NCBI GenBank assembly: GCA_013334755.1
Contig: JAAXWX010000013.1
Coordinates: 1 to 46,500, forward strand
Reading direction: 5' to 3'
Source of the DNA: Chlorobiaceae bacterium
Lineage (GTDB): Bacteria; Bacteroidota; Chlorobiia; Chlorobiales; Chlorobiaceae
Length of the DNA: 46,500 bases
Shown piece by piece: positions 17,846 to 32,048 of the stretch. The position numbers and the translations under genes were made by a program. Every line of letters begins with the position of its first letter. The first letter of the stretch is position 1. Below the pieces are notes generated by a model that was given only the letters and a program-made list of their open reading frames with translations, did not search any database and was not told the origin of the DNA.

Positions 17846-19345
17846 TCACTTTGTTGTCAGCAAATTTTTCTGAATTTTTCCTGCTGTGTTTTTAGGCAGA
17901 GCTGTCATGAACTCTATTTTTCTTGGAAGAGCATAGGCTGGCAGCCTGGATTTGCAGTGTTCAATGATCTGTTCAAGAGAACGTTCCATGCCCTTGTTCA
18001 CAACAACATATGCTTTTGCGGCTTCTCCAAGCTGGTCATCAGGTATACCGACAACGGCGACTTCTGTAATTTCGGTCATTTCAAGAATGACATTTTCAAT
18101 TGTTGCCGTCATGACCTTATAGCCGCTGGGTTTGATAAAGTCTTTTTCTCTTCCTACAATATAGATATATCCCTCTTCATCGACATATGCCAGATCGCCG
18201 GTGTACAGTTTTCCATTCCGGAAAGGATTTTTTGCCGGATCGGGAAATAGATACCCTGCGGTGATATTGTCGCCTTCCGCTACGATTTCCCCGACTTCTC
18301 CCTGTTTTACAGGAGTTCCGAACTTGCCGACAACCTGCAGCTTAACTCCCGAAATTCCCCTTCCGATAGAACCCGTTTTTTCTGCAAGCTTTTCGGGCAG
18401 CAGGCAAGAGAGACGTGCGGTAGCTTCGGTTTGCCCATAGCCTATAAATAATTGTACTTGCGGGGGGAGGACATTGCGCAGTTCGGTTATATATTTTTCA
18501 GAGAGTTTTCCACCGGCCTGCTGAATATAGCGTAAAGCAGGGAAATGGCGTTTCCTGAAACTCTGGTTGTTCAACAGACTCTGAAATGTACTTGGAACAC
18601 CTGCGAAGCCGGTGCATCCTGAAGCTTCCATGCTGTTCAGCGTATCTTCAGTGTATTGGAAGTAGTTGTTGATGACTAATGATCCTCCGGCCCTCAGATG
18701 GGTATGGAGTAGAGAGGTGCCGAAACAGTAATGGAAGGGCAGAATGGTCATCATTCTGTCTTCAGGGGATAACTGGAGATAGTCATTTATGGCATTAGTG
18801 TTTGCCATAATGTTTTTATGCGTAACCTTGACAGCGTTAGGTTCACCTGTTGAGCCCGAAGTGAACATCAATGCGGCAAGATCTTTTTCCGGGTTGACGG
18901 TAACGGTTTCACTTTTCGTATACATGTCAACTATCTGCTCTTTGTGCGCCATTATCGTGCTTTTGAGAACGATGATGCTGTTGCTGGCCGAGCATATCCG
19001 GGGGTATTTGGCTGCTGCATGGTCATCAATGCAAAATGCGCGGCACTGGACAATACGGGTGTATTTTTCGAGGTCGTCACTCGTCAGTCGTGATGGCAGT
19101 GGTACAGCAACCGCCCCTGCTTTTATAATACCCAGATAGCTTGCAGCCCAGAATGCCGAGTTATCCGCAAGGATTCCGATTCTTTCCTGAAACTTTATCT
19201 CCGATTGTTTCAGAGTTCTTGCAACCTCTTCAGCCATCAGGAGCAATTCACCGTAGGTTGTGCTTGTATTTTCCTCAATAAATGCCACATGGTCACGTTC
19301 TGCATTTTCAAGCAGATATAGGAACAGATTCTTCATCTTGTTCAT
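17846..19345 (-). CDS. AMP-forming acyl-CoA/acyl-ACP ligase
   Basis: 499 residues from ATG 19345; ATG 19336 is as likely and a TTG at 19366 is weaker. Adenylation-domain core motifs are in order: TSGSTGEPNAVKVTHKN (phosphate loop), GYGQTEATARLSCLL, YTGDLAYVDEEGYIYIVGREKD (ribose Asp) and the terminal lysine in KNTAGKIQKNLL. It should activate a carboxylic acid as the adenylate and load it on the phosphopantetheine of CoA or, more likely here, the ACP encoded 90 bases upstream. Comparable ligase-ACP-amidotransferase sets occur in exosortase-linked polysaccharide clusters; no exosortase is seen in this window. The substrate acid is unknown. Confidence 0.85.
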   Translation of the reverse strand: MNKMKNLFLYLLENAERDHVAFIEENTSTTYGELLLMAEEVARTLKQSEIKFQERIGILADNSAFWAASYLGIIKAGAVAVPLPSRLTSDDLEKYTRIVQCRAFCIDDHAAAKYPRICSASNSIIVLKSTIMAHKEQIVDMYTKSETVTVNPEKDLAALMFTSGSTGEPNAVKVTHKNIMANTNAINDYLQLSPEDRMMTILPFHYCFGTSLLHTHLRAGGSLVINNYFQYTEDTLNSMEASGCTGFAGVPSTFQSLLNNQSFRKRHFPALRYIQQAGGKLSEKYITELRNVLPPQVQLFIGYGQTEATARLSCLLPEKLAEKTGSIGRGISGVKLQVVGKFGTPVKQGEVGEIVAEGDNITAGYLFPDPAKNPFRNGKLYTGDLAYVDEEGYIYIVGREKDFIKPSGYKVMTATIENVILEMTEITEVAVVGIPDDQLGEAAKAYVVVNKGMERSLEQIIEHCKSRLPAYALPRKIEFMTALPKNTAGKIQKNLLTTK

Positions 19346-19435
19346 GACTTTGAAAAAGTTGCACAAATATCTCGTTCAGGGCACCTGAAGCCTATACAGC
19401 AGGGGAGCCATGAACGAGTATATATGACGGCGGTA

Positions 19436-19693
19436 TCAGGCATTCTTCCTTTTGTCAATAAAATTGACGAGTGACTGAACCGAGCCCAGATTGGCCCTGG
19501 TTATTTCAGTATCATTAATCTCGATCTGGAAATGCTGTTCAAGATAAACCACTATATTTGTAGTGCCCAGCGAATCGACGCCATGTTCAGCCATTGGGGT
19601 ATCATCCGGGGCGGCAGGGTTAAACAAGGGAAATGACTCGCAGAGATAGCTTACTAATTGCTCGCGGATTTCAGGTCTGGTTAGAGATGGCAT
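19436..19693 (-). CDS. Acyl carrier protein (cluster-specific)
   Basis: 85 residues. It has the phosphopantetheine attachment motif GVDSLGT with Ser41, followed by the typical acidic helix region FQIEINDTEIT. Its pI-relevant composition is moderately acidic and it is unlike a housekeeping AcpP in sequence. It sits between a NadE-like gene (40 bases) and the acyl ligase (90 bases), so it is probably the carrier onto which the ligase loads its acid. The carried acyl group could then be amidated by the adjacent AsnB- or NadE-type enzymes, or used by an acyltransferase. Confidence 0.88.
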   Translation of the reverse strand: MPSLTRPEIREQLVSYLCESFPLFNPAAPDDTPMAEHGVDSLGTTNIVVYLEQHFQIEINDTEITRANLGSVQSLVNFIDKRKNA

Positions 19694-19733
19694 ATGTTAT
19701 ATCTCCGAAATGTTATAGGATTTGAGGTTTTTA

Positions 19734-20684
19734 TCAAGGCACTAATGGTGAAAGACGCAGATATTCGGTTGTCCGTTGTTTGTTCTGTATATCTGCAATA
19801 ACATTGTTTACCTGTTCAACAGTCAGGTTGAATGATGAAGCTATCTTTTCGGAAGATTGTTTTTTTTCAAATGCATCCCAGATACCATCAAGCAATTCGA
19901 AGGGAAGCCGGTAAAAGAACTCCTCCTGAGTAGTATCGGCCGGGTACGTATCAGTTGTCGGTGGTCTCTGGATGATATCATCGGGCACCCCTATGCACTT
20001 TGCAAGGGCATAGACCTGTGTTTTAAACAAGTGGCGTATCGGCTGGATATCGACACCTCCGTCGCCATATTTTACAAAAAAGCCCAGATCGTGTTCATTT
20101 TTATTTCCTGTTCCTATCACGGCATAGTTGCGTCTTTCAGCCTCATGGTATAGCGTCATCATTCTTGCCCGCTGTTTCAGGTTCGATGCCGCTACGATCT
20201 CGTTGACCTGGGAAGGGCTTAGACGGCGGCGGATTTCCTTTCCGTCCGGCTTGATGACCACAGCACTGAAAACATTCAGAGACGCCTCTTCGAGAAGGTT
20301 CTGGGGAAGTACGATTTTGAATTTGTCATGAACGGGATCAAAATCAGGTACAGCCTGCTTGACTGCATTGTCGCGGGCATCATAGCAGCCGAATCCTCCG
20401 AGTGCGGGAGTGATATCTCTCGTGACAGTCCTGACGCCAAGACGACTGGCCATATCTTCAGCGAGTTTGGCACTGTCGGGACTCGAATCCCGGTCGGGAA
20501 GCATGGCGACAATAACCCGTTCAGCGCCCAGAGCATTGACCGCAAGCTGAAGAACGGTAGCTGAATCTAATCCGCCACTTACTCCTATAACACCGCCGTC
20601 ACGTTTCAGTTTTGTGATGCAGGATTCCTTCAGCCACGACACCAGGCGGGATGCCTCTTCCGAGGGATTGAAATCAGTAAACAT
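19734..20684 (-). CDS. nadE: NAD synthetase-like ATP-pyrophosphatase amide ligase
   Basis: 316 residues. It has the PP-loop SGGLDS at residues 36-41, LKQRARM at about 169-175 (the NadE family's xQARxR region) and GTGNKNEHDLGFFVKYGDGG at 191-210, so it belongs to the NH3-dependent NAD synthetase fold; no glutaminase domain is fused. It is longer than typical ammonia-type NadE (about 245-275 residues) because of extra sequence around 95-165. Tight linkage to asnB (18 bases) and an ACP suggests a dedicated amide ligase in polysaccharide modification. A housekeeping role in NAD synthesis is the alternative; it depends on whether the genome has a second nadE. Confidence 0.78.
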   Translation of the reverse strand: MFTDFNPSEEASRLVSWLKESCITKLKRDGGVIGVSGGLDSATVLQLAVNALGAERVIVAMLPDRDSSPDSAKLAEDMASRLGVRTVTRDITPALGGFGCYDARDNAVKQAVPDFDPVHDKFKIVLPQNLLEEASLNVFSAVVIKPDGKEIRRRLSPSQVNEIVAASNLKQRARMMTLYHEAERRNYAVIGTGNKNEHDLGFFVKYGDGGVDIQPIRHLFKTQVYALAKCIGVPDDIIQRPPTTDTYPADTTQEEFFYRLPFELLDGIWDAFEKKQSSEKIASSFNLTVEQVNNVIADIQNKQRTTEYLRLSPLVP

Positions 20685-20702
20685 AAATCATGTGTTTAAG
20701 CA

Positions 20703-22601
20703 TTAAAGATGATTGTTCTGTATAAAGGTGTGATGCCAGAGTTGGGTTGTTACAATTCCCATCAAGGCCATCTGCTCCATTTCGCTTGCCATTTGGCCCG
20801 CCCTCGCTTTATTCAGGAGTTTCTGAGCTGCTTGAGTTGAAAAAAGCCCTGTCTTGTTCAGTTGCTTCTCCGAAAGTAAATCACTGATATTATCAAATGA
20901 TTTGCTTTTAAAGATATCCTGTATCGGTGCCCGATAAGGAAATTTTGTGCGTTTGGCAATCTCATCCGGCAGCATGGTTTCCGCTACCCGGCGTAAAACA
21001 TATTTGTCCTGTTTCAGGCTTCGCAGTTTGAGTGTCTGGGGAAGCGAGTTGGCAAACTCAATCAGTCGATGGTCTAAAAAGGGAAAGCGCCCTTCAATTC
21101 CGTTGGCCATGGCGACCCTGTCTCCCTGTGAAGAGAGCAGGTAGGGGGTCATGAAGGTCATGATCTCCAGTGTCTGTGCTTGTTGAGGTGAACTCCAGTT
21201 CCGGAATCCTGGCGGAAGGATCCCGGACAGGCGTTCTTCAATTGGCCTCGCAGCGAGTCCTGCCCGGACTTCAGGATGGAAATAGCCCTGCAGTCGTGCA
21301 GTGCTGTTCCATCGGAACATATGACTGAAAAGCACATCATCGGTATGTTCCAGACCTTCCTGCATTGCCAATTCCAGACCGCGCAATTTATCTCTCTCGG
21401 GAAGGTAGGGGTAAAGCCGGCGAACCAGCGATCGTCTCATTGCCGATCCGGGATTGCGTGCCATAAACTGTCGGACTGCAGTTTCCTTGAAAATATCGTA
21501 GCCCATAAAAAATTCATCGGCGCCTTCACCAGTAAGGACTGCCTTGAGGCCGTGCCTGTTGACGTTTTCCGAAAGAGGAAGCATGGAAATCGGGCCCGCG
21601 CGCAGTTGCGGAACTTCAGTATGCCAGACCATTTTCGGTAAAGCTGAGGCAAGATCGTCTGCTGTACAGCGGGTTATATGATGGATGGTGCCGAGATGTC
21701 GTGCAACCTGGAGCTGGTACTCGCTTTCATCATAGTCGGGATGCTGGAATGTAATGGAAAAGGTGTGCAGCTCGGAAGCGTAATGGTTGGCGAAGGCGCC
21801 GATCACCGAGGAATCAACTCCCCCACTGAGGTAGGATGCAATAGGAACGTCGGCCTTCAGGCGAATTTTCACTGCATCGTCAAAGATAGATGAAAATGCT
21901 TCTTTTGCGGTTTCTTCCGACCATTTTCCCTCAGTGAAGTCAAGCTGCCAGTAGCGTTCTTTTTTAATATCACGCTTGCCGAATTCAAGAGTGTAATGAT
22001 ATGCAGGAAGTACTTCAAAAATGTTTTTAAAGGCTGTTTTTCCTGGAAGTGGTGTCCAGAATGTCCAGATGTCCTGCATGACTGAAAGATCCGGTTCCCT
22101 GGGTATTTCAGGGATGGTGAGCAGGGCTTTGATTTCAGAAGCGAAATAAAGTGTTTCTCCAATGAAGGTATAGAAAAAAGGGCATATGCCCAGCCTGTCT
22201 CTGCAGAGAATGAATTTCCGGTTTATGCTGTCCCAGAGTGCGAATGAGTATTGACCGTTCAGTTGCTTGAATCCTTCCACTCCATGTTCTTCGTAGAGGT
22301 GCAGAATGACTTCTACATCACATAGTGTTTTAAACGTATGGCGGGGAGTCAACTGGCGGCGTAGTTCTGTATGGTTGAAAATTTCGCCATTACAGGTAAG
22401 CCAGATTGTTCCAGTTTCATTTGACAATGGCTGCTGGCCTGCTTCAAGGTCAACAAAAGCAAGGCGAGTATTTCCGAAGCTGACAAGATCGCTTTGATAT
22501 ATACCGCTTCCTTCCGGGCCACGATGTCTGATGCTCCGAAGCATGGTCTCAAGTTTATGCTTGTCCTGGGGAGCGTTAAACCATCCTGCAATGCCGCACA
22601 T
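20703..22601 (-). CDS. asnB: AsnB-type glutamine-dependent amidotransferase
   Basis: 632 residues. The N-terminal glutaminase domain begins MCGIAGWF with the catalytic Cys2, then RHRGPEGSG and TCNGEIFNHTEL. The synthetase domain has SYLSGGVDSSV (PP-loop) and VLTGEGADEFFMGYD. Free asparagine synthetases have this layout, but in O-antigen and exopolysaccharide clusters AsnB homologues often amidate a uronic acid or a carrier-bound acid. Location next to NadE-like, ACP and acyl ligase genes favours such a specialised role. No nucleotide-sugar 6-dehydrogenase that would make a uronate is seen in the window. The final residues (NNHL) end without extra domains. Confidence 0.86.
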   Translation of the reverse strand: MCGIAGWFNAPQDKHKLETMLRSIRHRGPEGSGIYQSDLVSFGNTRLAFVDLEAGQQPLSNETGTIWLTCNGEIFNHTELRRQLTPRHTFKTLCDVEVILHLYEEHGVEGFKQLNGQYSFALWDSINRKFILCRDRLGICPFFYTFIGETLYFASEIKALLTIPEIPREPDLSVMQDIWTFWTPLPGKTAFKNIFEVLPAYHYTLEFGKRDIKKERYWQLDFTEGKWSEETAKEAFSSIFDDAVKIRLKADVPIASYLSGGVDSSVIGAFANHYASELHTFSITFQHPDYDESEYQLQVARHLGTIHHITRCTADDLASALPKMVWHTEVPQLRAGPISMLPLSENVNRHGLKAVLTGEGADEFFMGYDIFKETAVRQFMARNPGSAMRRSLVRRLYPYLPERDKLRGLELAMQEGLEHTDDVLFSHMFRWNSTARLQGYFHPEVRAGLAARPIEERLSGILPPGFRNWSSPQQAQTLEIMTFMTPYLLSSQGDRVAMANGIEGRFPFLDHRLIEFANSLPQTLKLRSLKQDKYVLRRVAETMLPDEIAKRTKFPYRAPIQDIFKSKSFDNISDLLSEKQLNKTGLFSTQAAQKLLNKARAGQMASEMEQMALMGIVTTQLWHHTFIQNNHL

Positions 22602-22694
22602 GAAATATTTTTTTAATGTTACAACAGTTCGAGCATAAAATATCGAAAGCCACGGGTTTTAACCTGTGACTGATATGTTTAATTCCTGGAAAGC

Positions 22695-22700
22695 ATTATA
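22695..22700 (-). promoter_or_regulatory. Possible -10 box upstream of asnB
   Basis: A perfect TATAAT reads on the minus strand, 94 bases before the asnB start. No good -35 hexamer is found at 16-18 bases. A short hairpin (CACGGGTT at 22651-22658, AACCTGTG at 22661-22668) would lie in the leader. Confidence 0.35.
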
Positions 22701-22739
22701 GTCAATCGGGTCCTTTTTTCAGTATCCATAACACGACGA

Positions 22740-23282
22740 TTACAGGTCTGATGAAAGAAAACGCCTGTATTTAAGTTTCGCTTTTTCGTATGCATCCCTG
22801 CTCATTCGGAAATAGTAGTTGAGCTCGTCCTCATCAGTGATGACCGCCCCGAAACTCAGAAGAAAATTTAATACTGCCTGATTGCCCTTTCTGACATCAG
22901 TATGTGACTGGTTGAATCCTAACCGGTATAATCCTATTTCGTAAATTGAAAGTACTGATTCAATTGCCGCATAGGGTGGGGCGTCATGTTTCAGTAACCA
23001 GCTGCCCCAGCAGAAGGAGTCGTTTCGGAAATCATAAAGCCGGATGACCCCAAGCTTTTCCGAGGTATTGTTTTCAATGATAAAATAATACTCCTGATTT
23101 TTCTTCTCCCTCTCTTTGTACTCTTGAATCCATGTTCTCTGGGCCTCTATATCATCTTTGGTTGTGGATAAAAATCTGCTTTTTTCAGGGTCAAGACGAA
23201 GGGAGAGGATGAATTCAGCATCACTTGCTTCAACAAGCCGGAAAAGGATATGCCTGGCGATGTTACTGATGATAGGATCCAC
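22740..23282 (-). CDS. GNAT N-acetyltransferase, RimJ/RimL-like
   Basis: 180 residues. The start is GTG 23282, backed by a good Shine-Dalgarno (GGAGAA, on the minus strand) 5 bases upstream. Fold motifs are FRLVEASDAEFILSLRLDP, LGVIRLYDF, and a late DVRKGNQAVLNFLLSFGAV, the acetyl-CoA helix-turn of the RimJ/RimL and PseH-like class. In sugar clusters such small GNATs acetylate an amino group on a nucleotide sugar. It lies 138 bases upstream of asnB, with a promoter-like TATAAT between, so it may be transcribed separately. Substrate unknown. Confidence 0.8.
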   Translation of the reverse strand: MDPIISNIARHILFRLVEASDAEFILSLRLDPEKSRFLSTTKDDIEAQRTWIQEYKEREKKNQEYYFIIENNTSEKLGVIRLYDFRNDSFCWGSWLLKHDAPPYAAIESVLSIYEIGLYRLGFNQSHTDVRKGNQAVLNFLLSFGAVITDEDELNYYFRMSRDAYEKAKLKYRRFLSSDL

Positions 23283-23667: not shown

Positions 23668-24591
23668 TTATGGATAGGAATGATATGTTTCAATGTGTGT
23701 AATGATGTTGTTTATAGTTTTTGTTAATTTTTTTGCTCCATTCGAGTTGAAATGGTCCGCATCGAAAAAATCATTATCTGAAAAAGAAGAGTCGGAGAGG
23801 AGATTGATGTAATATACATTTTTATTTTTTTCTTGAAATTTTCTGGCATTCGATATGGTTCTGGTTATTTGTACACTATCGAGATTATCTCGATAATATT
23901 GGTGTCCTGGTGGTGTGAATAAGATTACAGATATGTTTTTATTTTTACAGAGAGTAATAATTTTTTGCAGAGAATAGTTGTTCTTACTCCAGTTATTATA
24001 ATTATGTGCTGTTTGGACAGATACAGATTTTTTTGCTGTTTCCAGAAAATCGACACCTGGATTTGAGATGTAGATAGTGCTATAACCCAAGCTGTCTGTG
24101 GTTATCGGTAATTCATTTCTTTGATAATAGGATAGTAATCTTTCAAAGTTTACATTGAACGGCAAGCTGAACAGCTCTGTGTAGTAGCGAATGTCATTGA
24201 TTTTATATATATCATAATACAGCGAGTAGTTTTTTGTTTCCCATTGATTTTCCAGTCTGTTTGTAAATGAGGCATACGAAATAGGGATCAGTACATACTT
24301 TAATTTGTTAAGATTATTTTCATATTTATTGAGGATCTCAAAGTCATAATTCAATGTTTGTGAAAAGTGACTTCCATTAAAGCCTTTAAGGTCAAAATAG
24401 GCTGGATTGATTCCTGAGAATGCATGTGATTCCCCTAAACATAAAATTTCGTAATTTCGAGCATTTTTGATATATGTATTGGCTTTGATCTTATAATCAT
24501 TGGGCATGTTTTGTAACATAATTTCCAAAATTATACATAACGGAATTATTGTTAATGAGAAAAAAAGTGTTTTATTAAAGAGTTTTTTCAT
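23668..24591 (-). CDS. SGNH-type membrane-anchored protein, AlgJ/AlgX-like partner of the MBOAT enzyme
   Basis: 307 residues. An N-terminal hydrophobic helix (about residues 8-28) looks like a signal anchor. GESHA at 53-57 supplies the SGNH block-I Ser55, and DADH at 277-280 the Asp/His of block V. FTPPGH lies between. Such proteins work outside the inner membrane with an MBOAT protein, taking an acyl group and passing it to a polysaccharide; AlgJ/AlgX with AlgI is the model. The start is 1 base after the MBOAT stop, so the pair is co-translated. The protein is rich in Asn, Lys, Ile and Tyr, in line with its AT-rich DNA. Named function is inference from motifs and pairing. Confidence 0.7.
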   Translation of the reverse strand: MKKLFNKTLFFSLTIIPLCIILEIMLQNMPNDYKIKANTYIKNARNYEILCLGESHAFSGINPAYFDLKGFNGSHFSQTLNYDFEILNKYENNLNKLKYVLIPISYASFTNRLENQWETKNYSLYYDIYKINDIRYYTELFSLPFNVNFERLLSYYQRNELPITTDSLGYSTIYISNPGVDFLETAKKSVSVQTAHNYNNWSKNNYSLQKIITLCKNKNISVILFTPPGHQYYRDNLDSVQITRTISNARKFQEKNKNVYYINLLSDSSFSDNDFFDADHFNSNGAKKLTKTINNIITHIETYHSYP

Positions 24592-24592
24592 A

Positions 24593-26065
24593 TTAAAACT
24601 GGAAATATATGAATTGTTGCTTGGCGGTAACTTTCAGTGCGACAATTATGAAAAATAATCCATAATAACAAGCCCATCTGAACCATAAAGGCTTTTCAAC
24701 TAATGATGTATTCCTGTTTCTGTAAATCAGGAATATTAACAGAAACGTAAAAAAGAGAGCAAAAAAGTCTTCCCGGTAAAGACCCATAAGAATATTATTT
24801 TTAATAAAGCTGTGTATGCCAATGCTTTGCAGCAGATTATAGTTGCCATAGATGTCATGTATGTGTGTGACGATATACCATGCATCTTCTGTATTTGCAG
24901 CCCGGAAGAAAATGTACGTGAAACTGACAAGATTAAATGTGATAAATATCTGCCATGCGGTAATCCATTTACTCTTTTCAACACCAAGCTTTTTATAGAG
25001 TTTTTTCTTATAGGGTTTGTAGAAGATCGAAACTGCAAGATATATGCCGTGCAGCACTCCCCAGATGATAAATGTCCAGCTTGCCCCGTGCCATATGCCT
25101 GAAAGGAGAAAGGTGCAAAATAGAGCAAGAGCTGTTCCGTTTGTCCCCAGACTCCTCCACTTCATCTGAAGCGGTTGAAAAATATAGTCGAGAATCCAGC
25201 GGGAAAAAGAGATGTGCCAGCGCCTCCAGAAATCAGCGCAGGAGGTTGCCAGATAAGGACTGTTGAAATTTTGTGTCAGATTGATGCCGAAAAGCCAGGA
25301 GGTGCCGAGAGCCATATTTGTGTATCCCGCAAAGTCGAAGTAGATCTGGAATGCATATGCGTAGGTGGCTATGATGAGCGGCAGACCAGTATAGGAATAT
25401 ACATCGTTATAGACCGGATCGACAAAGAGCGCAAGCCTGTCGGCAACAACCACTTTGAGAAAAAGCCCCCAACAGAACAGCAGCAGGCCTCTGCGGACAT
25501 CATCGTATTTGAACTCATAGGGTTTTCTGATTTGAGGGAGCAGGTTTTCCGCCCGCTCGATAGGGCCCTGGAGAAGTTTCGGGAAAAAACTAATGTAGAG
25601 TGCGAAATAGCCTATATGCTGTTCTGGTTTTGTCTTCATGAAATAGATATCCACCAGATAGGATAAAGCCTGAAATATAAAAAAAGAGAGAGCAATGGGC
25701 ACAAGCGGTGATGGTTCTTGCAGTTCCATACCGGAGAATAGAACGTTGAACAGAAAATTCAGATTTTCTACAATGAAAATAAGGTACTTGAAGTAAACGA
25801 GAATGGCGAGGTTTGTCAGGATACTGACAAACAGTATTTTTTTTCTTGTTTTCTCATGAGTGTATCTGTTGAGGACAATGCCTGAATAATAAGAAAAAAG
25901 AATAACAAATGTCAGAATGACAAGCAGAGATGGCTTAAGTAAAAACCCATAGAAAATGTAGCTGCTTAACAGCAGCACTACCCATCTAAAACGGTCAGTT
26001 GTAAAATAAAAAAGAAGAAAAACAACCGGAAGAAAGATGAAATATGAAAGCGAATTGAATACCAT
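24593..26065 (-). CDS. MBOAT-family O-acyltransferase (AlgI/DltB-like)
   Basis: 490 residues with about ten to twelve hydrophobic segments. Family signatures are FFPKLLQGPIERAENLLPQI (around 160-180), FWRRWHISFSRW with His284 and SGIWHGASW with the invariant His326, and a further WGVLHG. The protein sits in the inner membrane and passes acyl groups from a cytosolic donor through its core to acceptors outside. DltB uses a D-alanyl carrier protein as donor, so the ACP gene 84 bases upstream is a natural candidate donor here. The SGNH partner follows by one base. Acceptor is inferred to be the exported polysaccharide of this locus. Confidence 0.92.
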   Translation of the reverse strand: MVFNSLSYFIFLPVVFLLFYFTTDRFRWVVLLLSSYIFYGFLLKPSLLVILTFVILFSYYSGIVLNRYTHEKTRKKILFVSILTNLAILVYFKYLIFIVENLNFLFNVLFSGMELQEPSPLVPIALSFFIFQALSYLVDIYFMKTKPEQHIGYFALYISFFPKLLQGPIERAENLLPQIRKPYEFKYDDVRRGLLLFCWGLFLKVVVADRLALFVDPVYNDVYSYTGLPLIIATYAYAFQIYFDFAGYTNMALGTSWLFGINLTQNFNSPYLATSCADFWRRWHISFSRWILDYIFQPLQMKWRSLGTNGTALALFCTFLLSGIWHGASWTFIIWGVLHGIYLAVSIFYKPYKKKLYKKLGVEKSKWITAWQIFITFNLVSFTYIFFRAANTEDAWYIVTHIHDIYGNYNLLQSIGIHSFIKNNILMGLYREDFFALFFTFLLIFLIYRNRNTSLVEKPLWFRWACYYGLFFIIVALKVTAKQQFIYFQF

Positions 26066-26149
26066 GTATTCAGCATATTAAGCGTTCAGTATGAAAAAGG
26101 TCTTTATGTATTCATAAAAAAGCTGTTTGAACAGTATCAATTAATCCGT

Positions 26150-26392
26150 TCAGAATATTTTCTGTTCAATGAGATCGATAAATTCGCCAATATTTTGAAG
26201 TTGCATGATGTCCTTGAGATCAAATTTGATATTGAATTCTTTCTCAATTGCGACAATAATACTGATGTGAGAAAGTGAGTCCCACGCTTCAATATTTTCA
26301 GCTGTAGTTTCACGGAAAAGTTCAATGGAATCATCATCGAGCACATCTTTGAAAACTTCGGTTATCCTGTTTTTTATTTTCTCCTTAATCAT
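26150..26392 (-). CDS. Acyl carrier protein (partner of the FkbH-like protein)
   Basis: 80 residues. The carrier motif is AWDSLSHI with the phosphopantetheinyl Ser39, followed by EFNIKFDLKDI. Its start overlaps the FkbH-like gene's stop by four bases (ATGA), so the two are very likely translated as a pair, as in FkbH/FkbJ-type glyceroyl-ACP systems of polyketide clusters. It is distinct from the ACP at 19436, so the locus has two separate carrier proteins. Confidence 0.88.
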   Translation of the reverse strand: MIKEKIKNRITEVFKDVLDDDSIELFRETTAENIEAWDSLSHISIIVAIEKEFNIKFDLKDIMQLQNIGEFIDLIEQKIF

Positions 26393-28173
26393 GAATTTAC
26401 TTGTATAAAATTGTTTTTTAGGCTGTAGCCATCTGTAATGTCGAGCCTCCAGATGCTTGCATCTTTTTTATTACTGTTGACTTTCTGAAATCCGAACTCT
26501 TCAAATAAACCGCTTACCATACCGTTTTTTGCTGTGGGGAAGTAATAGCCTACAATATGTGAAATTCCGCAGGTCATTGCTTCTGCAACGAAACGGTCGA
26601 GCATTGCTGATTCCATACCTCGTTTAAGAACCCTGCAGCTCATGAGCCATAAGTTGATATGCAGTTCATTTCTTTTTTTTTCTCCCACCATAACCGATAC
26701 AAGCCCGTTATCCCCGAATTTATCACTCAGCCGCCCATAAAGCGTTATATAATGATCATTGTCAGTAATTGATTGTATTTCAGTGAGCGTGTATCGACGC
26801 GTTGTCAGATTGAACTGATTGGTTTTATTGGTAAGCTGAGCAATCCGGTCGAGATAGACTGGGCTGAACGGGCGGATTTCAGCAACCATTTCAAGAGAAC
26901 GCAAAAAATCGCCATAGTTTTCAAAACATTCCTGCTGTTTTTTTCGTTCGTTATTACCGGTATAGAACAAGCTCCTCTGAAGATCGTCTACTGAGAGGGT
27001 TATGGTTTCGAACAGTCCTGTTTTGTCTAAAATATCAATATACTTCACAACATTGCTTCCAAGTTCAGGAACGATTACATCTGGCTCCTGGACTCTGACA
27101 ATTTCGCGTTCAACAGGATTGTCGTCGGCAAATACCACGCTCTCCATGCTGATGTTAAGAGCATTTGCGATATCCCGGATATTTTCATGTTTCGGTTTCC
27201 AGTTTGCCCTGAACACCGCAAAATCTTCGAGAGAAAGAATATTGTCTTGATGCATAAAGCCCTCCCGCGCATTTTCCTCATCATTTTTGGAACAGATTGC
27301 GAGAATGATGCCTCGTTCTTTTAACCCCTTGATATACTCCTGAAATTCGCTATAAGCCTCAGATTCCGGGGTCTCCTTGCCGATCCTTATTTCCTGAAGC
27401 CCTTCATCGCCGATTACTCCGCCCCAGATCGTATTGTCAAGATCAAGTGCGAGACACTTTTTAGTTCTTCCATAGATTGCTTTTATGATCGTTGCTACAC
27501 TGTTTGCAAGAAATGGAATGGCATCGTAGGAAAGTGCATATTTAAAAGAGTACCAGAAAAGCCTGTCGTGCCAGTGTTCGAGGCCAAACCATGCTGAGAG
27601 ATAATTGATATCGTTAAGAAAAAGATTTTTTCGCCGTCTGGCTTCTTCACTGAAACGGAGATTGAGATACCCGATAAATCTTGACCTTCCATGAATATCG
27701 TAAGCATCAAGGTTACCAAGCAAACGGTAATGAGGCAGTTCAAAGTTGTTCTGGATTACAGGGCAGGAATAGTCCGTTGCAATACGGTCCCAGAGACTGA
27801 AGAAACGCCCGGTTTCACTGGAAAGCAATCTGTCAACATCTTCACTGTTTTCATGTAAGGCGGGAAACCGGGTAATATTTACAGAGGTAGTGTGGATAAA
27901 GATGATGTGCGGTTGGAAATCCTTTAGCCCGTTATCCGGAAACATGATATCTTCGAAGTATCGATTGTAGTCCGATTCATAAAATACCGGTTTTATGCCG
28001 TCATGAAGTAGAAACAGCTCAAGCATATCCCTGATTTCCGCTGTTGTAGAACCTCCGAGAATAGCGATTCGTCTCTCTATGAAGTCTGAGCGGTTTAGCA
28101 GGTCACGACGGATTGCCTTTTTTTTACGTAATAGGGCGCTGGCATCTATTGGATACTGGAAATAATCTGTCAT
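26389..28173 (-). CDS. FkbH-like protein: HAD-IIIC phosphatase domain with C-terminal GNAT-like domain
   Basis: 594 residues from ATG 28173 (MTDYFQYPIDASALLRKKK is the family start); the frame is open to 28383 but that extension is not family-like. Domain order: an SGNH-like N-terminal domain (GGST at 40-43), a HAD core with LDLDNTIWGG carrying Asp244 and Asp246, then a GNAT-like C-terminal part with MSCRVLKRGMES where Cys513 lies. FkbH proteins take a glyceroyl group from 1,3-bisphosphoglycerate onto an enzyme thiol and an ACP, and remove phosphate. The paired ACP and downstream MBOAT suggest D-glyceroyl (or a product of it) as an O-acyl decoration. The last step is inference. Confidence 0.86.
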   Translation of the reverse strand: MTDYFQYPIDASALLRKKKAIRRDLLNRSDFIERRIAILGGSTTAEIRDMLELFLLHDGIKPVFYESDYNRYFEDIMFPDNGLKDFQPHIIFIHTTSVNITRFPALHENSEDVDRLLSSETGRFFSLWDRIATDYSCPVIQNNFELPHYRLLGNLDAYDIHGRSRFIGYLNLRFSEEARRRKNLFLNDINYLSAWFGLEHWHDRLFWYSFKYALSYDAIPFLANSVATIIKAIYGRTKKCLALDLDNTIWGGVIGDEGLQEIRIGKETPESEAYSEFQEYIKGLKERGIILAICSKNDEENAREGFMHQDNILSLEDFAVFRANWKPKHENIRDIANALNISMESVVFADDNPVEREIVRVQEPDVIVPELGSNVVKYIDILDKTGLFETITLSVDDLQRSLFYTGNNERKKQQECFENYGDFLRSLEMVAEIRPFSPVYLDRIAQLTNKTNQFNLTTRRYTLTEIQSITDNDHYITLYGRLSDKFGDNGLVSVMVGEKKRNELHINLWLMSCRVLKRGMESAMLDRFVAEAMTCGISHIVGYYFPTAKNGMVSGLFEEFGFQKVNSNKKDASIWRLDITDGYSLKNNFIQVNS

Positions 28174-29272: not shown

Positions 29273-30133
29273 ATGAATATTCTTGTTACCGGCAGCAGTG
29301 GCCAATTGGGTTCTGAACTTCGGACAATATCGCCCCATTGCGGGGGACTGCATTTTTTTTTCTATGATTTGCCTGAACTTGATATTACTCGTTGCGAACA
29401 GGTTGACCGAGTATGTCAGGAACATGGTATCGAGGTTATTGTGAATTGTGCAGCATATACTGCAGTGGACAGGGCTGAATCGGATGCGGAAGCAGCTTTT
29501 ATGGTCAACCGGGATGGTGTTGCTGTTCTTGCAGCATGTGCAAAAGATCGTCAAGCCCTGCTGGTGCATATATCCACTGATTATGTTTTTAACGGGGAGT
29601 CCTGTGTTCCCTACAGGGAAACAGATACTGCCAGCCCGATATGTGTTTATGGTCTTTCAAAATGGGAAGGGGAGGAGCAAATTCGACAAATTAGCCCCTC
29701 TCATCTAATTATCCGAACCTCATGGCTTTATTCAGGATTCGGAAATAATTTCGTGAAGTCCATGCTTCGTCTTGGTGCTGATCACCAGATGCTGAATGTT
29801 GTGTTTGACCAGGTAGGCACGCCGACCTATGCTTCAGATCTTGCTTCGGCTATTGTGTCGATTCTTGAAAAGCATGAACGGCATTATCATTATGCTGAGA
29901 CCTATCATTATTCAAACGAAGGGGTATGTTCCTGGTATGATTTTGCCTGGACTATTATGAAAGCGAGAGACTTGCAATGCAGGGTATTGCCGATAACCAG
30001 CAATGAGTACCCGACTATTGCCCGACGTCCACATTTCAGCGTTTTGCATAAGGCCAAAATAAAGAAGGATTGGGAACTTGATATACCGCACTGGTATGAC
30101 GGATTGGAGAGAATGTTGAAGCATAGTTGTTGA
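29273..30133 (+). CDS. rmlD: dTDP-4-dehydrorhamnose reductase, paralogue 1
   Basis: 286 residues. NAD(P) motif VTGSSGQLGSEL at 5-16, NCAAYTAVDRAE at 58-69, catalytic STDYVF at 101-106 and YGLSK with Tyr126 and Lys130; YHYSNEGVCSWYDFA is the C-terminal substrate-side block. All active-site residues expected of RmlD are present, so this is the best candidate for the working reductase that makes dTDP-L-rhamnose. It is the first of three tandem copies and the most divergent from the other two. Confidence 0.93.
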   Translation: MNILVTGSSGQLGSELRTISPHCGGLHFFFYDLPELDITRCEQVDRVCQEHGIEVIVNCAAYTAVDRAESDAEAAFMVNRDGVAVLAACAKDRQALLVHISTDYVFNGESCVPYRETDTASPICVYGLSKWEGEEQIRQISPSHLIIRTSWLYSGFGNNFVKSMLRLGADHQMLNVVFDQVGTPTYASDLASAIVSILEKHERHYHYAETYHYSNEGVCSWYDFAWTIMKARDLQCRVLPITSNEYPTIARRPHFSVLHKAKIKKDWELDIPHWYDGLERMLKHSC

Positions 30134-30194
30134 AATGCTTCAAGTTTTGCGCTTTATACCGATTTTGCTGCAAAGGTTCTAACTGATACTATTT

Positions 30195-31076
30195 ATGAAT
30201 ATTATCGTAACCGGAAGTGAGGGACAACTCGGTTCAACATTTCGAGCAATAGCTTCACGGCATCCTCATTGGAGTTTTTTCTTTTTTAGCCATCGTGATC
30301 TTGACATCAGTGATGAGGATATGGTAGCTGCAAGAATGAGGGAATGTAAATGTGACGTTGTAATTAATTGTGCAGCATTCACATCTGTGGACAGGGCTGA
30401 GGAGGATTCTTTTTTATCATACAGGGTTAATCGTGACGGAGCAGCTGTACTTGCCAGGTGTGCAAATGAACAAAATGTATTATTGGTTCATTTTTCTACT
30501 TATAACGTATTTAACGGGGCATCGCCTATTCCCTATCAGGAAACCTTTGAAGCAATACCCCATGGGGTCAACGCTAAGGCGAAGCTTGAAGGTGAGGAAC
30601 TGATAAGGTGTACAACAGGGCTTTCATATATAATCATTCGTGCAGCTTGGTTGTATTCTCGGTTCGGGAAGAATTTTATGAAGACCATGTTGCAACTGGG
30701 TCATGAGCGGGAGTCGATAAACGTGGTATCCGATCGAGTCGGGACGCCTACATATGCAGAGGATCTTGCTGAAGCAGTCATGACTATCCTTGCAAAGGCG
30801 GATTTTAAAAAAAAATATGCAGCAACTTATCATTATTCAAACGAAGGCGTTTGTTCCTGGTATGATTTCGCCTTAGCCATTATGCAACAAGCCAAGCTGT
30901 CATGCAGGGTTTTTCCTATCGAGAGTTCAGAATTTCCTGTAGAAGGACCGAGACCATGGTACAGCGTTTTAAACAACAATGCAATCAAAAAAGATTGGGG
31001 ACTCGAAATTCCTCACTGGCACTTTTCGCTGGTCATTGCGATTGAAATGATGCGGAATGAAGGAATGATTGGTTGA
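30195..31076 (+). CDS. RmlD-like protein lacking the catalytic tyrosine, paralogue 2
   Basis: 293 residues, full length with no frameshift. The NAD(P) motif VTGSEGQLGSTF is intact. The catalytic Tyr is replaced: residue 126 is Asn (codon AAC at 30570-30572) in VNAKAK, where paralogues 1 and 3 have Tyr, though Lys130 remains. The STDYVF motif reads STYNVF. An SDR without its Tyr should not reduce dTDP-4-ketorhamnose by the usual mechanism, so it is probably inactive or has taken another role, for instance as a partner of RmlC. The open frame and conserved end (YHYSNEGVCSWYDFA) argue against simple decay. Confidence 0.85.
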   Translation: MNIIVTGSEGQLGSTFRAIASRHPHWSFFFFSHRDLDISDEDMVAARMRECKCDVVINCAAFTSVDRAEEDSFLSYRVNRDGAAVLARCANEQNVLLVHFSTYNVFNGASPIPYQETFEAIPHGVNAKAKLEGEELIRCTTGLSYIIIRAAWLYSRFGKNFMKTMLQLGHERESINVVSDRVGTPTYAEDLAEAVMTILAKADFKKKYAATYHYSNEGVCSWYDFALAIMQQAKLSCRVFPIESSEFPVEGPRPWYSVLNNNAIKKDWGLEIPHWHFSLVIAIEMMRNEGMIG

Positions 31077-31172
31077 TCATGCTTCCTCACAGAACGAGTT
31101 CAGAATGTGGTATTACATTGTATTTTTTTCCAAAACTCGATAAAAAAATAAACGTAAAATCTCAGCTTTTTC

Positions 31173-32048
31173 ATGAATATCATGGTGACAGGTAGCGACG
31201 GACAGCTTGGTTCCGAATTTCGTCTGGTGGCAGCAAGATATCCACAATGGAGTTTCTACTTTTTTAATCATCATGATCTCGATATCAGTGTTGAGGAAAC
31301 GGTTGCTGAAAGAATGAGGGAATGTAAATGTGACGTTGTGATAAATTGTGCAGCATTCACATCTGTGGACAAGGCTGAGGAGGATTCTTTTTTATCATAC
31401 AGGGTTAATCGTGACGGAGCAGCTGTAGTTGCCAGGTGTGCAAAGGGGCAAAATGTGTTACTTATTCATATTTCTACCTATTATGTGTTTGACGGTCTGG
31501 CCGAGAAGCCTTACAGGGAAACCGATGAAATGCGACCAAAAGGAGTATATGCACAGTCAAAGTTTGAAGGAGAGGAGCTCATAAGGAGTTCAGGAGCCTC
31601 ATATATAATTATCCGTACAGGCTGGTTGTATTCGTTTTTTGGTCAGAATTTTATGAAGACTATGCTGCATCTTGGCGGAGAACGCGAGTCGTTGAACGTG
31701 GTGTCAGACAGGGTGGGAACTCCGACTTATGCGGGGGATCTTGCTGCAGCGGTACTGACCATGCTTGGACAGGTGGATCTAAAAAAAACATATGCGGCAA
31801 CCTATCATTATACGAATGAAGGAGTTTGTTCCTGGTATGATTTTGCTGTGGCCATAATGTCGCTTTCAAAGTCACCATGCAGGGTGATGCCGATTGAGAG
31901 TTCCGCATTTCCAGTCTTGGGTCCGAGGCCGCAGTACAGCGTGCTCAACAACGGGTTAATCAAGCGAGACTGGGGTCTGGAAATACCCCACTGGCAGGCA
32001 TCACTTGCCGAGATGCTTGAAACCATAAGGCGGGATACAACGGGGTGA
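31173..32048 (+). CDS. dTDP-4-dehydrorhamnose reductase-like, paralogue 3
   Basis: 291 residues. VTGSDGQLGSEF at the N-terminus; the YAQSK motif keeps Tyr126 and Lys130, so reductase chemistry is possible. The STDYVF motif is altered to STYYVF (Asp103 to Tyr), shared with paralogue 2. It is closest to paralogue 2, with a stretch of near-identical DNA (31311-31444). It may be a second rhamnose reductase or a reductase for another dTDP-4-keto-6-deoxy sugar. It lies 49 bases before rmlB. Confidence 0.85.
   Translation: MNIMVTGSDGQLGSEFRLVAARYPQWSFYFFNHHDLDISVEETVAERMRECKCDVVINCAAFTSVDKAEEDSFLSYRVNRDGAAVVARCAKGQNVLLIHISTYYVFDGLAEKPYRETDEMRPKGVYAQSKFEGEELIRSSGASYIIIRTGWLYSFFGQNFMKTMLHLGGERESLNVVSDRVGTPTYAGDLAAAVLTMLGQVDLKKTYAATYHYTNEGVCSWYDFAVAIMSLSKSPCRVMPIESSAFPVLGPRPQYSVLNNGLIKRDWGLEIPHWQASLAEMLETIRRDTTG

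What the first reader, a model, noticed from the sequence alone, without database searches (positions are those of the whole stretch)
23668..28173. FkbH-ACP-MBOAT-SGNH module: possible glyceroyl (hydroxyacyl) decoration of a surface polysaccharide
FkbH-like proteins load a glyceroyl unit from 1,3-bisphosphoglycerate on an ACP in polyketide clusters. Here the FkbH gene overlaps an ACP gene and is followed by an MBOAT transferase and an SGNH partner that overlap in function with AlgI/AlgJ and DltB. Read together, a cytosolic ACP-bound three-carbon acid could be passed through MBOAT to an exported glycan, analogous to D-alanylation but with a different acid. I know of no well-described system of exactly this make-up.
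Basis: inference. Interest (0 to 1): 0.62.

Follow-up and report, generated by a model that had tools for sequence, protein, structure and literature searches.

The report
Glycolysis-fed glycan acylation cassette
A green sulfur bacterium carries a four-gene cassette, found in rearranged form in many distant bacteria, that probably takes a three-carbon acid from sugar breakdown, hangs it on a carrier protein and passes it through the membrane onto a surface sugar polymer; it works like the D-alanine system of Gram-positive cell walls but with a different acid and a different loading enzyme.

Summary
The four genes are real: FkbH (26389-28173), acyl carrier protein (26150-26392), MBOAT (24593-26065) and SGNH protein (23668-24591), one minus-strand operon with catalytic residues and folds intact. 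(1) Of the 80 nearest FkbH loci in GTDB species genomes, 59 have an ACP immediately downstream and 50 a same-strand MBOAT close by, across several phyla. (2) MBOATs next to an ACP lack the AlgI-type PLGG at the position where DltB touches its carrier DltC: 0/28 in FkbH loci; 0/7 against 43-48/53 in a sample not chosen by FkbH. The window MBOAT lacks it; relatives in its family, without ACP, have it. (3) The window MBOAT keeps the C-terminal FIYFQF acyl-shuttle motif, so it combines a Dlt-type carrier donor with a PatA/AlgI-type built-in shuttle. (4) A neighbouring ACP/AMP-ligase cassette is separable. The literature read states that non-Dlt MBOAT-SGNH pathways lack a carrier; no paper on FkbH plus MBOAT glycan decoration was found. 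Most likely: glyceroyl ester decoration of the polysaccharide made by this cluster. Acid and acceptor are inferred, not shown. New variant of a known kind.

The parts
26389..28173 (-). FkbH-like protein (594 aa): FkbH_N domain, HAD-IIIC domain (D244, D246, T248; C294-S295-K296; D350-D351), C-terminal domain with invariant C513. Predicted loader of a C3 hydroxyacid (glyceroyl) from 1,3-bisphosphoglycerate.
   Evidence: (solved homologue 3slr, BF1531)
26150..26392 (-). Acyl carrier protein ACP1 (80 aa), Ppant site Ser39 (WDS39LSHI43); hydrophobic +1 and +4 residues as in DltC M36/V39.
   Evidence: AcpS-type PPTase present in genome
24593..26065 (-). MBOAT acyltransferase (490 aa): H284, H326 (DltB H289/H336), non-PLGG donor segment YIFQPLQMKWR (294-304), C-terminal acyl-shuttle motif F485-I-Y487-F-Q-F490. 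Predicted: takes acyl from ACP1, forms acyl-Tyr487 outside.
23668..24591 (-). SGNH/DUF1574 membrane-anchored protein (307 aa): N-terminal hydrophobic helix, S55 (GES55H), D277-x-x-H280. Predicted final transferase to the glycan.

Best explanation
A carrier-protein-fed envelope acylation cassette. FkbH takes a glyceroyl unit from the glycolytic intermediate 1,3-bisphosphoglycerate, removes the phosphate and loads glyceroyl on the phosphopantetheine of ACP1 (inferred from family). ACP1 docks on the cytoplasmic HC-type helix of the MBOAT, in the place where MBOATs without a carrier have PLGG; H326 drives transfer to Tyr487 of the C-terminal FIYFQF shuttle (residues shown; transfer inferred from PatA, DltB and DltX). 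The acyl-Tyr passes its load to Ser55 of the SGNH protein, which esterifies a hydroxyl of an exported polysaccharide, most likely the Wzy-type polymer made by the cluster around it. It works like Dlt but with another loader and acid, and with the shuttle fused to the MBOAT.
For: Contiguous operon; families. Of the 80 nearest FkbH loci, 70 have an ACP within 6 kb (59 immediately behind FkbH), 50 a same-strand MBOAT nearby and 31 an MBOAT directly followed by an SGNH gene; phyla include Bacillota, Nitrospirota, Thermodesulfobacteriota, Lentisphaerota, Spirochaetota, Pseudomonadota and Bacteroidota; a version is on a Sinorhizobium pSymB-type replicon. In twelve other FkbH loci of the phylum no MBOAT was seen (L031-L042). 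Donor-site test: ACP-adjacent MBOATs 0/28 with PLGG versus 19/27 with neither ACP nor FkbH near (Fisher 8e-9, not corrected for kinship); independent phylum sample 0/7 versus 43/53 (48/53 counting [GS]LGG; Fisher 5e-5 / 2e-6). The segment is DltB's DltC-docking helix (M302, V305, I306, M309; PMC11035591). Tree: FkbH-ACP linkage needs at least 4 changes on well-supported branches; AMP-ligase-ACP linkage is a further clade. FIYFQF matches FXYXXF, whose Tyr carries the acyl in PatA and DltX (PMC12148441). MBOAT model closest to DltB (TM 0.66/0.77); SGNH model matches DltD and PatB. FkbH loads glyceryl on carrier proteins from 1,3-BPG in polyketide and NRPS pathways.
Against: No substrate, product or acceptor is shown. 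The window MBOAT sits on a long branch (1.27) with nearest relatives that have no ACP neighbour, so its ACP linkage rests on position and on the missing PLGG. A few FkbH-near MBOATs without adjacent ACP do have PLGG (L097, L101, L114 upstream copy, L122, L029 second copy), so FkbH proximity alone does not prove ACP feeding. Only the window genome among 86 of its family has the intact module, so there is no replication within the family. A second ACP with an AMP ligase lies about 4 kb away. 30 of the 80 nearest FkbH loci show no MBOAT nearby, some because contigs end.
Confidence: 0.62

Rival explanations
1. Same machine, other acid: FkbH-loaded glyceroyl is converted on the ACP (by enzymes elsewhere) to lactoyl, methylglyceroyl or another hydroxyacid before the MBOAT moves it.
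For: Many related modules carry MaoC (17/80), SDR (10/80; both in 9), VOC (15/80), split transketolase (9/80) or methyltransferase (3/80) genes near FkbH. Dehydration plus reduction of glyceroyl would give lactoyl (inference).
Against: The window operon has none of these between FkbH and SGNH; the next genes belong to a separable cassette.
Confidence: 0.15
2. FkbH-ACP1 and MBOAT-SGNH are independent: FkbH-ACP1 makes an acyl-ACP for a cytosolic N- or O-acyltransferase (for example the GNAT at 22740-23282 or a sugar-nucleotide enzyme), while MBOAT-SGNH is an ordinary O-acetyltransferase using acetyl-CoA.
For: FkbH-ACP units occur without MBOAT in two other genomes of the genus (L035, L036) and in 30 of 80 loci; MBOATs occur without FkbH in about a dozen genomes of the family.
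Against: Those stand-alone MBOATs carry PLGG (12 of 12 examined, rows L140-L151), the window MBOAT does not; repeated co-linkage in several phyla; the GNAT travels with the other cassette in G114 (L259) without FkbH.
Confidence: 0.13
3. The MBOAT is fed by ACP2 loaded by the AMP ligase (17846-19693), as in the AMP-ligase-ACP-MBOAT-SGNH units of another family of the phylum, and FkbH-ACP1 does something else.
For: Seven MBOATs of family f10 sit behind an AMP ligase and ACP, with a window-like donor segment LDYLFRPLQMKFRN.
Against: ACP1, not ACP2, is adjacent; the ACP2/AMP-ligase cassette exists without MBOAT beside it in G114 and G015; ACP2 has Thr at the +4 docking position where ACP1 and the f10 ACPs have Ile or Val.
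Confidence: 0.07
4. Chance neighbourhood of unrelated genes in a variable polysaccharide locus, or a decaying island.
For: Low G+C (32-44% against 45-51%) marks a possibly recently acquired stretch; FkbH fragments with stops exist in G094 and G145.
Against: All four frames intact, catalytic residues conserved, same association many times elsewhere.
Confidence: 0.03

Closest known systems
Dlt system (DltA-DltB-DltC-DltD-DltX, teichoic acid D-alanylation)
   Same: Dedicated carrier protein as acyl donor, MBOAT across the membrane, SGNH protein as last transferase; MBOAT model is closest to DltB.
   Different: Loader is FkbH (HAD), not an adenylating ligase; acid predicted to be glycerate; shuttle Tyr is fused to the MBOAT C-terminus instead of DltX; TIGR04091 score 177 against cut-off 375.
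PatA-PatB, AlgI-AlgJ/AlgX and other MBOAT-SGNH O-acetyltransferases
   Same: MBOAT with C-terminal FXYXXF acyl-shuttle motif plus separate SGNH protein.
   Different: Those use acyl-CoA and lack a carrier protein (PMC12148441); the PLGG donor segment of MBOATs without ACP neighbours is absent here.
FkbH/ACP glyceryl-loading pair of polyketide, tetronate and NRPS pathways (FK520, tetromadurin, vioprolide)
   Same: FkbH gene with adjacent stand-alone ACP; TIGR01686 far above cut-off.
   Different: No polyketide synthase, dehydrogenase or FabH-like gene; an MBOAT-SGNH pair instead.
Campylobacter jejuni flagellar glycan locus with an FkbH-domain gene (cj1302) and di-O-methylglyceric acid on pseudaminic acid
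   Same: FkbH gene in a surface-glycan locus and a glyceric acid derivative on the glycan; the causal link is not stated in those papers.
   Different: No MBOAT-SGNH export step described there.
AMP-ligase-ACP-MBOAT-SGNH units of Bacteroidota family f10 (found here)
   Same: ACP next to MBOAT, window-like donor segment, FIYFQF shuttle.
   Different: Loader is an AMP ligase; MBOATs form a separate clade.

Membership tests
FkbH-type glyceryl transferase/phosphatase | FkbH domain over curated cut-off with HAD-IIIC motifs | tested here: met
   TIGR01686 290.9 bits (cut-off 146.65), HAD-IIIC 69 bits; D244xD246xT248, K296, D350D351
FkbH-type glyceryl transferase/phosphatase | Stand-alone ACP partner adjacent | tested here: met
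   4-bp overlap in window; 59/80 related loci
FkbH-type glyceryl transferase/phosphatase | Loads glyceryl from 1,3-bisphosphoglycerate | not testable with these tools
   needs biochemistry
Dlt system | MBOAT over the DltB equivalog cut-off | tested here: not met
   TIGR04091 176.8 against 375
Dlt system | Adenylating D-alanine ligase DltA as loader in the unit | tested here: not met
   loader position held by FkbH; the AMP ligase nearby belongs to a separable cassette
Dlt system | Separate DltX microprotein carrying the shuttle Tyr | tested here: inconclusive
   FIYFQF is fused to the MBOAT C-terminus; ORFs under 60 aa were not searched for a DltX-like gene
Dlt system | Carrier protein docks on the MBOAT HC helix | tested here: inconclusive
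   sequence at that helix is of the ACP-adjacent kind; binding not tested
CoA-dependent MBOAT-SGNH O-acetyltransferases (PatAB/AlgIJ type) | C-terminal FXYXXF acyl-shuttle motif | tested here: met
   F485-IYFQF490
CoA-dependent MBOAT-SGNH O-acetyltransferases (PatAB/AlgIJ type) | No dedicated carrier protein | tested here: not met
   ACP1 in the operon
CoA-dependent MBOAT-SGNH O-acetyltransferases (PatAB/AlgIJ type) | PLGG donor segment seen in MBOATs without ACP neighbour (empirical marker of this study) | tested here: not met
   YIFQPLQMKWR instead
SGNH transferase/hydrolase | Ser in block I and D-x-x-H in block V, SGNH fold | tested here: met
   S55, D277, H280; Foldseek to DltD 6pfx E 3.6e-5 and PatB 7tlv E 2.3e-4

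The most novel reading that the evidence does not exclude
Carrier-protein-fed MBOAT-SGNH machines are not confined to D-alanylation. They arose several times from CoA-fed MBOATs by remodelling the carrier-docking helix (loss of PLGG), and pair with interchangeable loaders: FkbH for glycolytic three-carbon hydroxyacids (glyceroyl; with MaoC and SDR lactoyl; with methyltransferase O-methylglyceroyl), or AMP ligases for other acids. They decorate surface polysaccharides in many phyla, and the donor type of any MBOAT can be read from that helix.
Probability: 0.45. Interest if true: 0.75.

Novelty: new variant of a known kind. Interest (0 to 1): 0.6.

Why it matters
It would break the stated rule that MBOAT-SGNH pathways other than Dlt use acyl-CoA, show a direct route from a glycolytic intermediate to a surface decoration, and give a sequence marker (the segment at DltB residues 302-309) that predicts whether any bacterial MBOAT is fed by a carrier protein or by CoA. 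The prediction can be tested in culturable bacteria such as Sinorhizobium meliloti.

Tried and rejected
Literature searches for FkbH with MBOAT, O-antigen, capsule, lipopolysaccharide, and for gellan glyceryl genes: nothing on this make-up. Sequence search of the SGNH protein in the PDB gave nothing; folding was needed. I considered that the nearby Lachnospiraceae MBOATs (L051, L080, L087, L091, L099, L109) were orthologues of the window MBOAT; they are not ACP-adjacent and have PLGG, so I treat them as CoA-type relatives. I considered ACP2/AMP ligase as the donor and hold it less likely.

Full report
WHAT IS THERE. The window lies in a 2.1-Mb, 97% complete genome that encodes the FMO bacteriochlorophyll protein (PF02327, 745 bits), so it is a green sulfur bacterium. 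The finding sits in a polysaccharide locus: glycosyltransferases, Wzy, WecG/TagA, PIG-L, Acetyltransf_6 proteins, nucleotide-sugar genes, RmlA, GalE- and ManC-like genes. On the minus strand between rmlC and a GNAT gene lie FkbH (28173-26389), ACP1 (26392-26150), MBOAT (26065-24593) and SGNH (24591-23668), tightly spaced. G+C is 32-44% against 45-51% further left. The genome has one FkbH and one MBOAT.

FAMILIES AND RESIDUES. FkbH: TIGR01686 291 bits over a cut-off of 147, FkbH_N, HAD-IIIC; HAD residues D244, D246, T248, K296, D350, D351 and two invariant cysteines, C294 and C513. ACP1: PF00550, Ser39. MBOAT: PF03062; by profile and by fold nearest to DltB (model pLDDT 86); H284 and H326 correspond to DltB H289 and H336; it ends in FIYFQF. 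SGNH: DUF1574 by Pfam; model (pLDDT 74, middle part poor) matches SGNH folds including DltD and PatB; S55, D277, H280 conserved. An AcpS-type phosphopantetheinyl transferase is in the genome.

SAME ORDER ELSEWHERE. A profile scan of 84,980 species genomes kept the 80 nearest FkbH loci (47-53% identity), chosen by FkbH alone. 59 have an ACP immediately behind FkbH, 70 within 6 kb, 50 a same-strand MBOAT within 4-5 kb, 31 an MBOAT directly followed by an SGNH gene. They are mostly Lachnospiraceae and Oscillospiraceae, with Nitrospirota, Thermodesulfobacteriota, Lentisphaerota, Spirochaetota and Alphaproteobacteria among them. Two Bacteroidota genomes of another family carry FkbH-ACP-MBOAT-SGNH (L029, L030); Rhodobacteraceae SC52 has ACP-FkbH-MBOAT-ORF-VOC and Sinorhizobium meliloti pSymB has MBOAT-ORF-ACP-FkbH. 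Twelve other FkbH loci of the phylum lack an MBOAT. Recurrent extra genes are MaoC, SDR, VOC, split transketolase and methyltransferase: plausible tailoring of the ACP-bound acid, hence probably more than one acid in the class (inference).

IS THE MBOAT FED BY THE ACP? In DltB, carrier DltC docks on a cytoplasmic helix through M302, V305, I306, M309 (PMC11035591). At that position MBOATs without an ACP neighbour usually have YIPLGG(N/S)R. In FkbH loci, 0 of 28 ACP-adjacent MBOATs have PLGG, against 19 of 27 with neither ACP nor FkbH near. In a sample of MBOATs from 118 genomes of the phylum, not selected for FkbH, 7 of 60 had an ACP next door; none of the 7 has PLGG, while 43 of the other 53 do, or 48 if [GS]LGG is counted. 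Those 7 are AMP-ligase-ACP-MBOAT units, with a GDSL/SGNH gene before the ligase; their segment LDYLFRPLQMKFRN resembles the window's LDYIFQPLQMKWRS. Within the window's own family, the 12 MBOATs without ACP that were examined all have PLGG. The Fisher values ignore kinship, but a tree of 51 MBOATs needs at least four changes of the FkbH-ACP label on well-supported branches and places the AMP-ligase group in a further clade. So linkage to an ACP and absence of PLGG go together on several separate branches. ACP1 has hydrophobic L40 and I43 where DltC uses M36 and V39; ACP2 of the neighbouring cassette has Thr at the second.

HOW THE ACYL GROUP CROSSES. In PatA and in DltX the Tyr of FXYXXF carries the acyl group to the SGNH protein; the 2025 paper states that MBOAT/SGNH pathways other than Dlt lack a carrier protein and evidently use acyl-CoA (PMC12148441). 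The window MBOAT has the fused motif and an operon ACP: a combination of the two known designs. 24 of 28 ACP-adjacent MBOATs keep the motif; of the other four, two end in near-matches (FIYASI, FIYSRI) and one is cut by its contig end.

THE NEIGHBOURING CASSETTE. GNAT-AsnB-NadE-like-ACP2-AMP ligase (23282-17846) occurs in G114 (another genus) and partly in G015 without FkbH or MBOAT beside it. It is a separate unit, which bounds the finding at 23668-28173.

WHAT IS SHOWN AND WHAT IS INFERRED. Shown: gene order, families, residues, recurrence, the donor-site association, its repeated occurrence on the tree, fold matches. Inferred: glyceroyl as the acid (from FkbH biochemistry in polyketide and NRPS pathways), feeding of the MBOAT by ACP1, and the cluster's polysaccharide as acceptor. 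Precedent for glyceric acid on a bacterial surface glycan exists in Campylobacter flagella, whose locus also has an FkbH gene, and, from general knowledge not checked here, in native gellan (L-glyceryl ester).

Noticed in passing
window 17846-23282: GNAT-AsnB-type amidotransferase-NAD-synthase-like-ACP2-AMP ligase cassette; found as a unit without the FkbH module in G114 (L259) and in part in G015 (L258). Function unknown, possibly activates and amidates an acid for the glycan.
   Followed up: partly
L256:8596-8763 and L257:9186-9355: Fragments of the FkbH N-terminus (about 56 aa, 70-78% identical, with stops) in two other genomes of the genus: remnants of a lost module.
   Followed up: partly
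L239-L245: AMP-ligase-ACP-MBOAT-GDSL/SGNH units in Bacteroidota family f10: a second kind of carrier-fed MBOAT with fused shuttle motif.
   Followed up: partly
L048, L056, L066, L071, L081, L086, L088, L103, L104: Split transketolase (N and C halves) inside FkbH-ACP-MBOAT modules of Firmicutes; may build or extend the ACP-bound acid. Unexplained.
   Followed up: no
L035, L036 (same genus as window): A different FkbH cluster with ketosynthase III-like, SDR, MaoC-like or VOC and ACP genes in a polysaccharide locus, no MBOAT.
   Followed up: no
window 29273-32048: Three tandem rmlD-like genes (286, 293 and 291 aa) between rmlC and rmlB; one would suffice for dTDP-rhamnose.
   Followed up: no
L136 (Sinorhizobium meliloti 1021 pSymB 631-633 kb): The FkbH frame is split in two overlapping ORFs in the 1021 record but single in other strains: frameshift or sequence error.
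   Followed up: no
L097, L122: MBOAT close behind FkbH without a detected adjacent ACP and with PLGG: exceptions to the ACP/no-PLGG pattern, possibly CoA-type.
   Followed up: no
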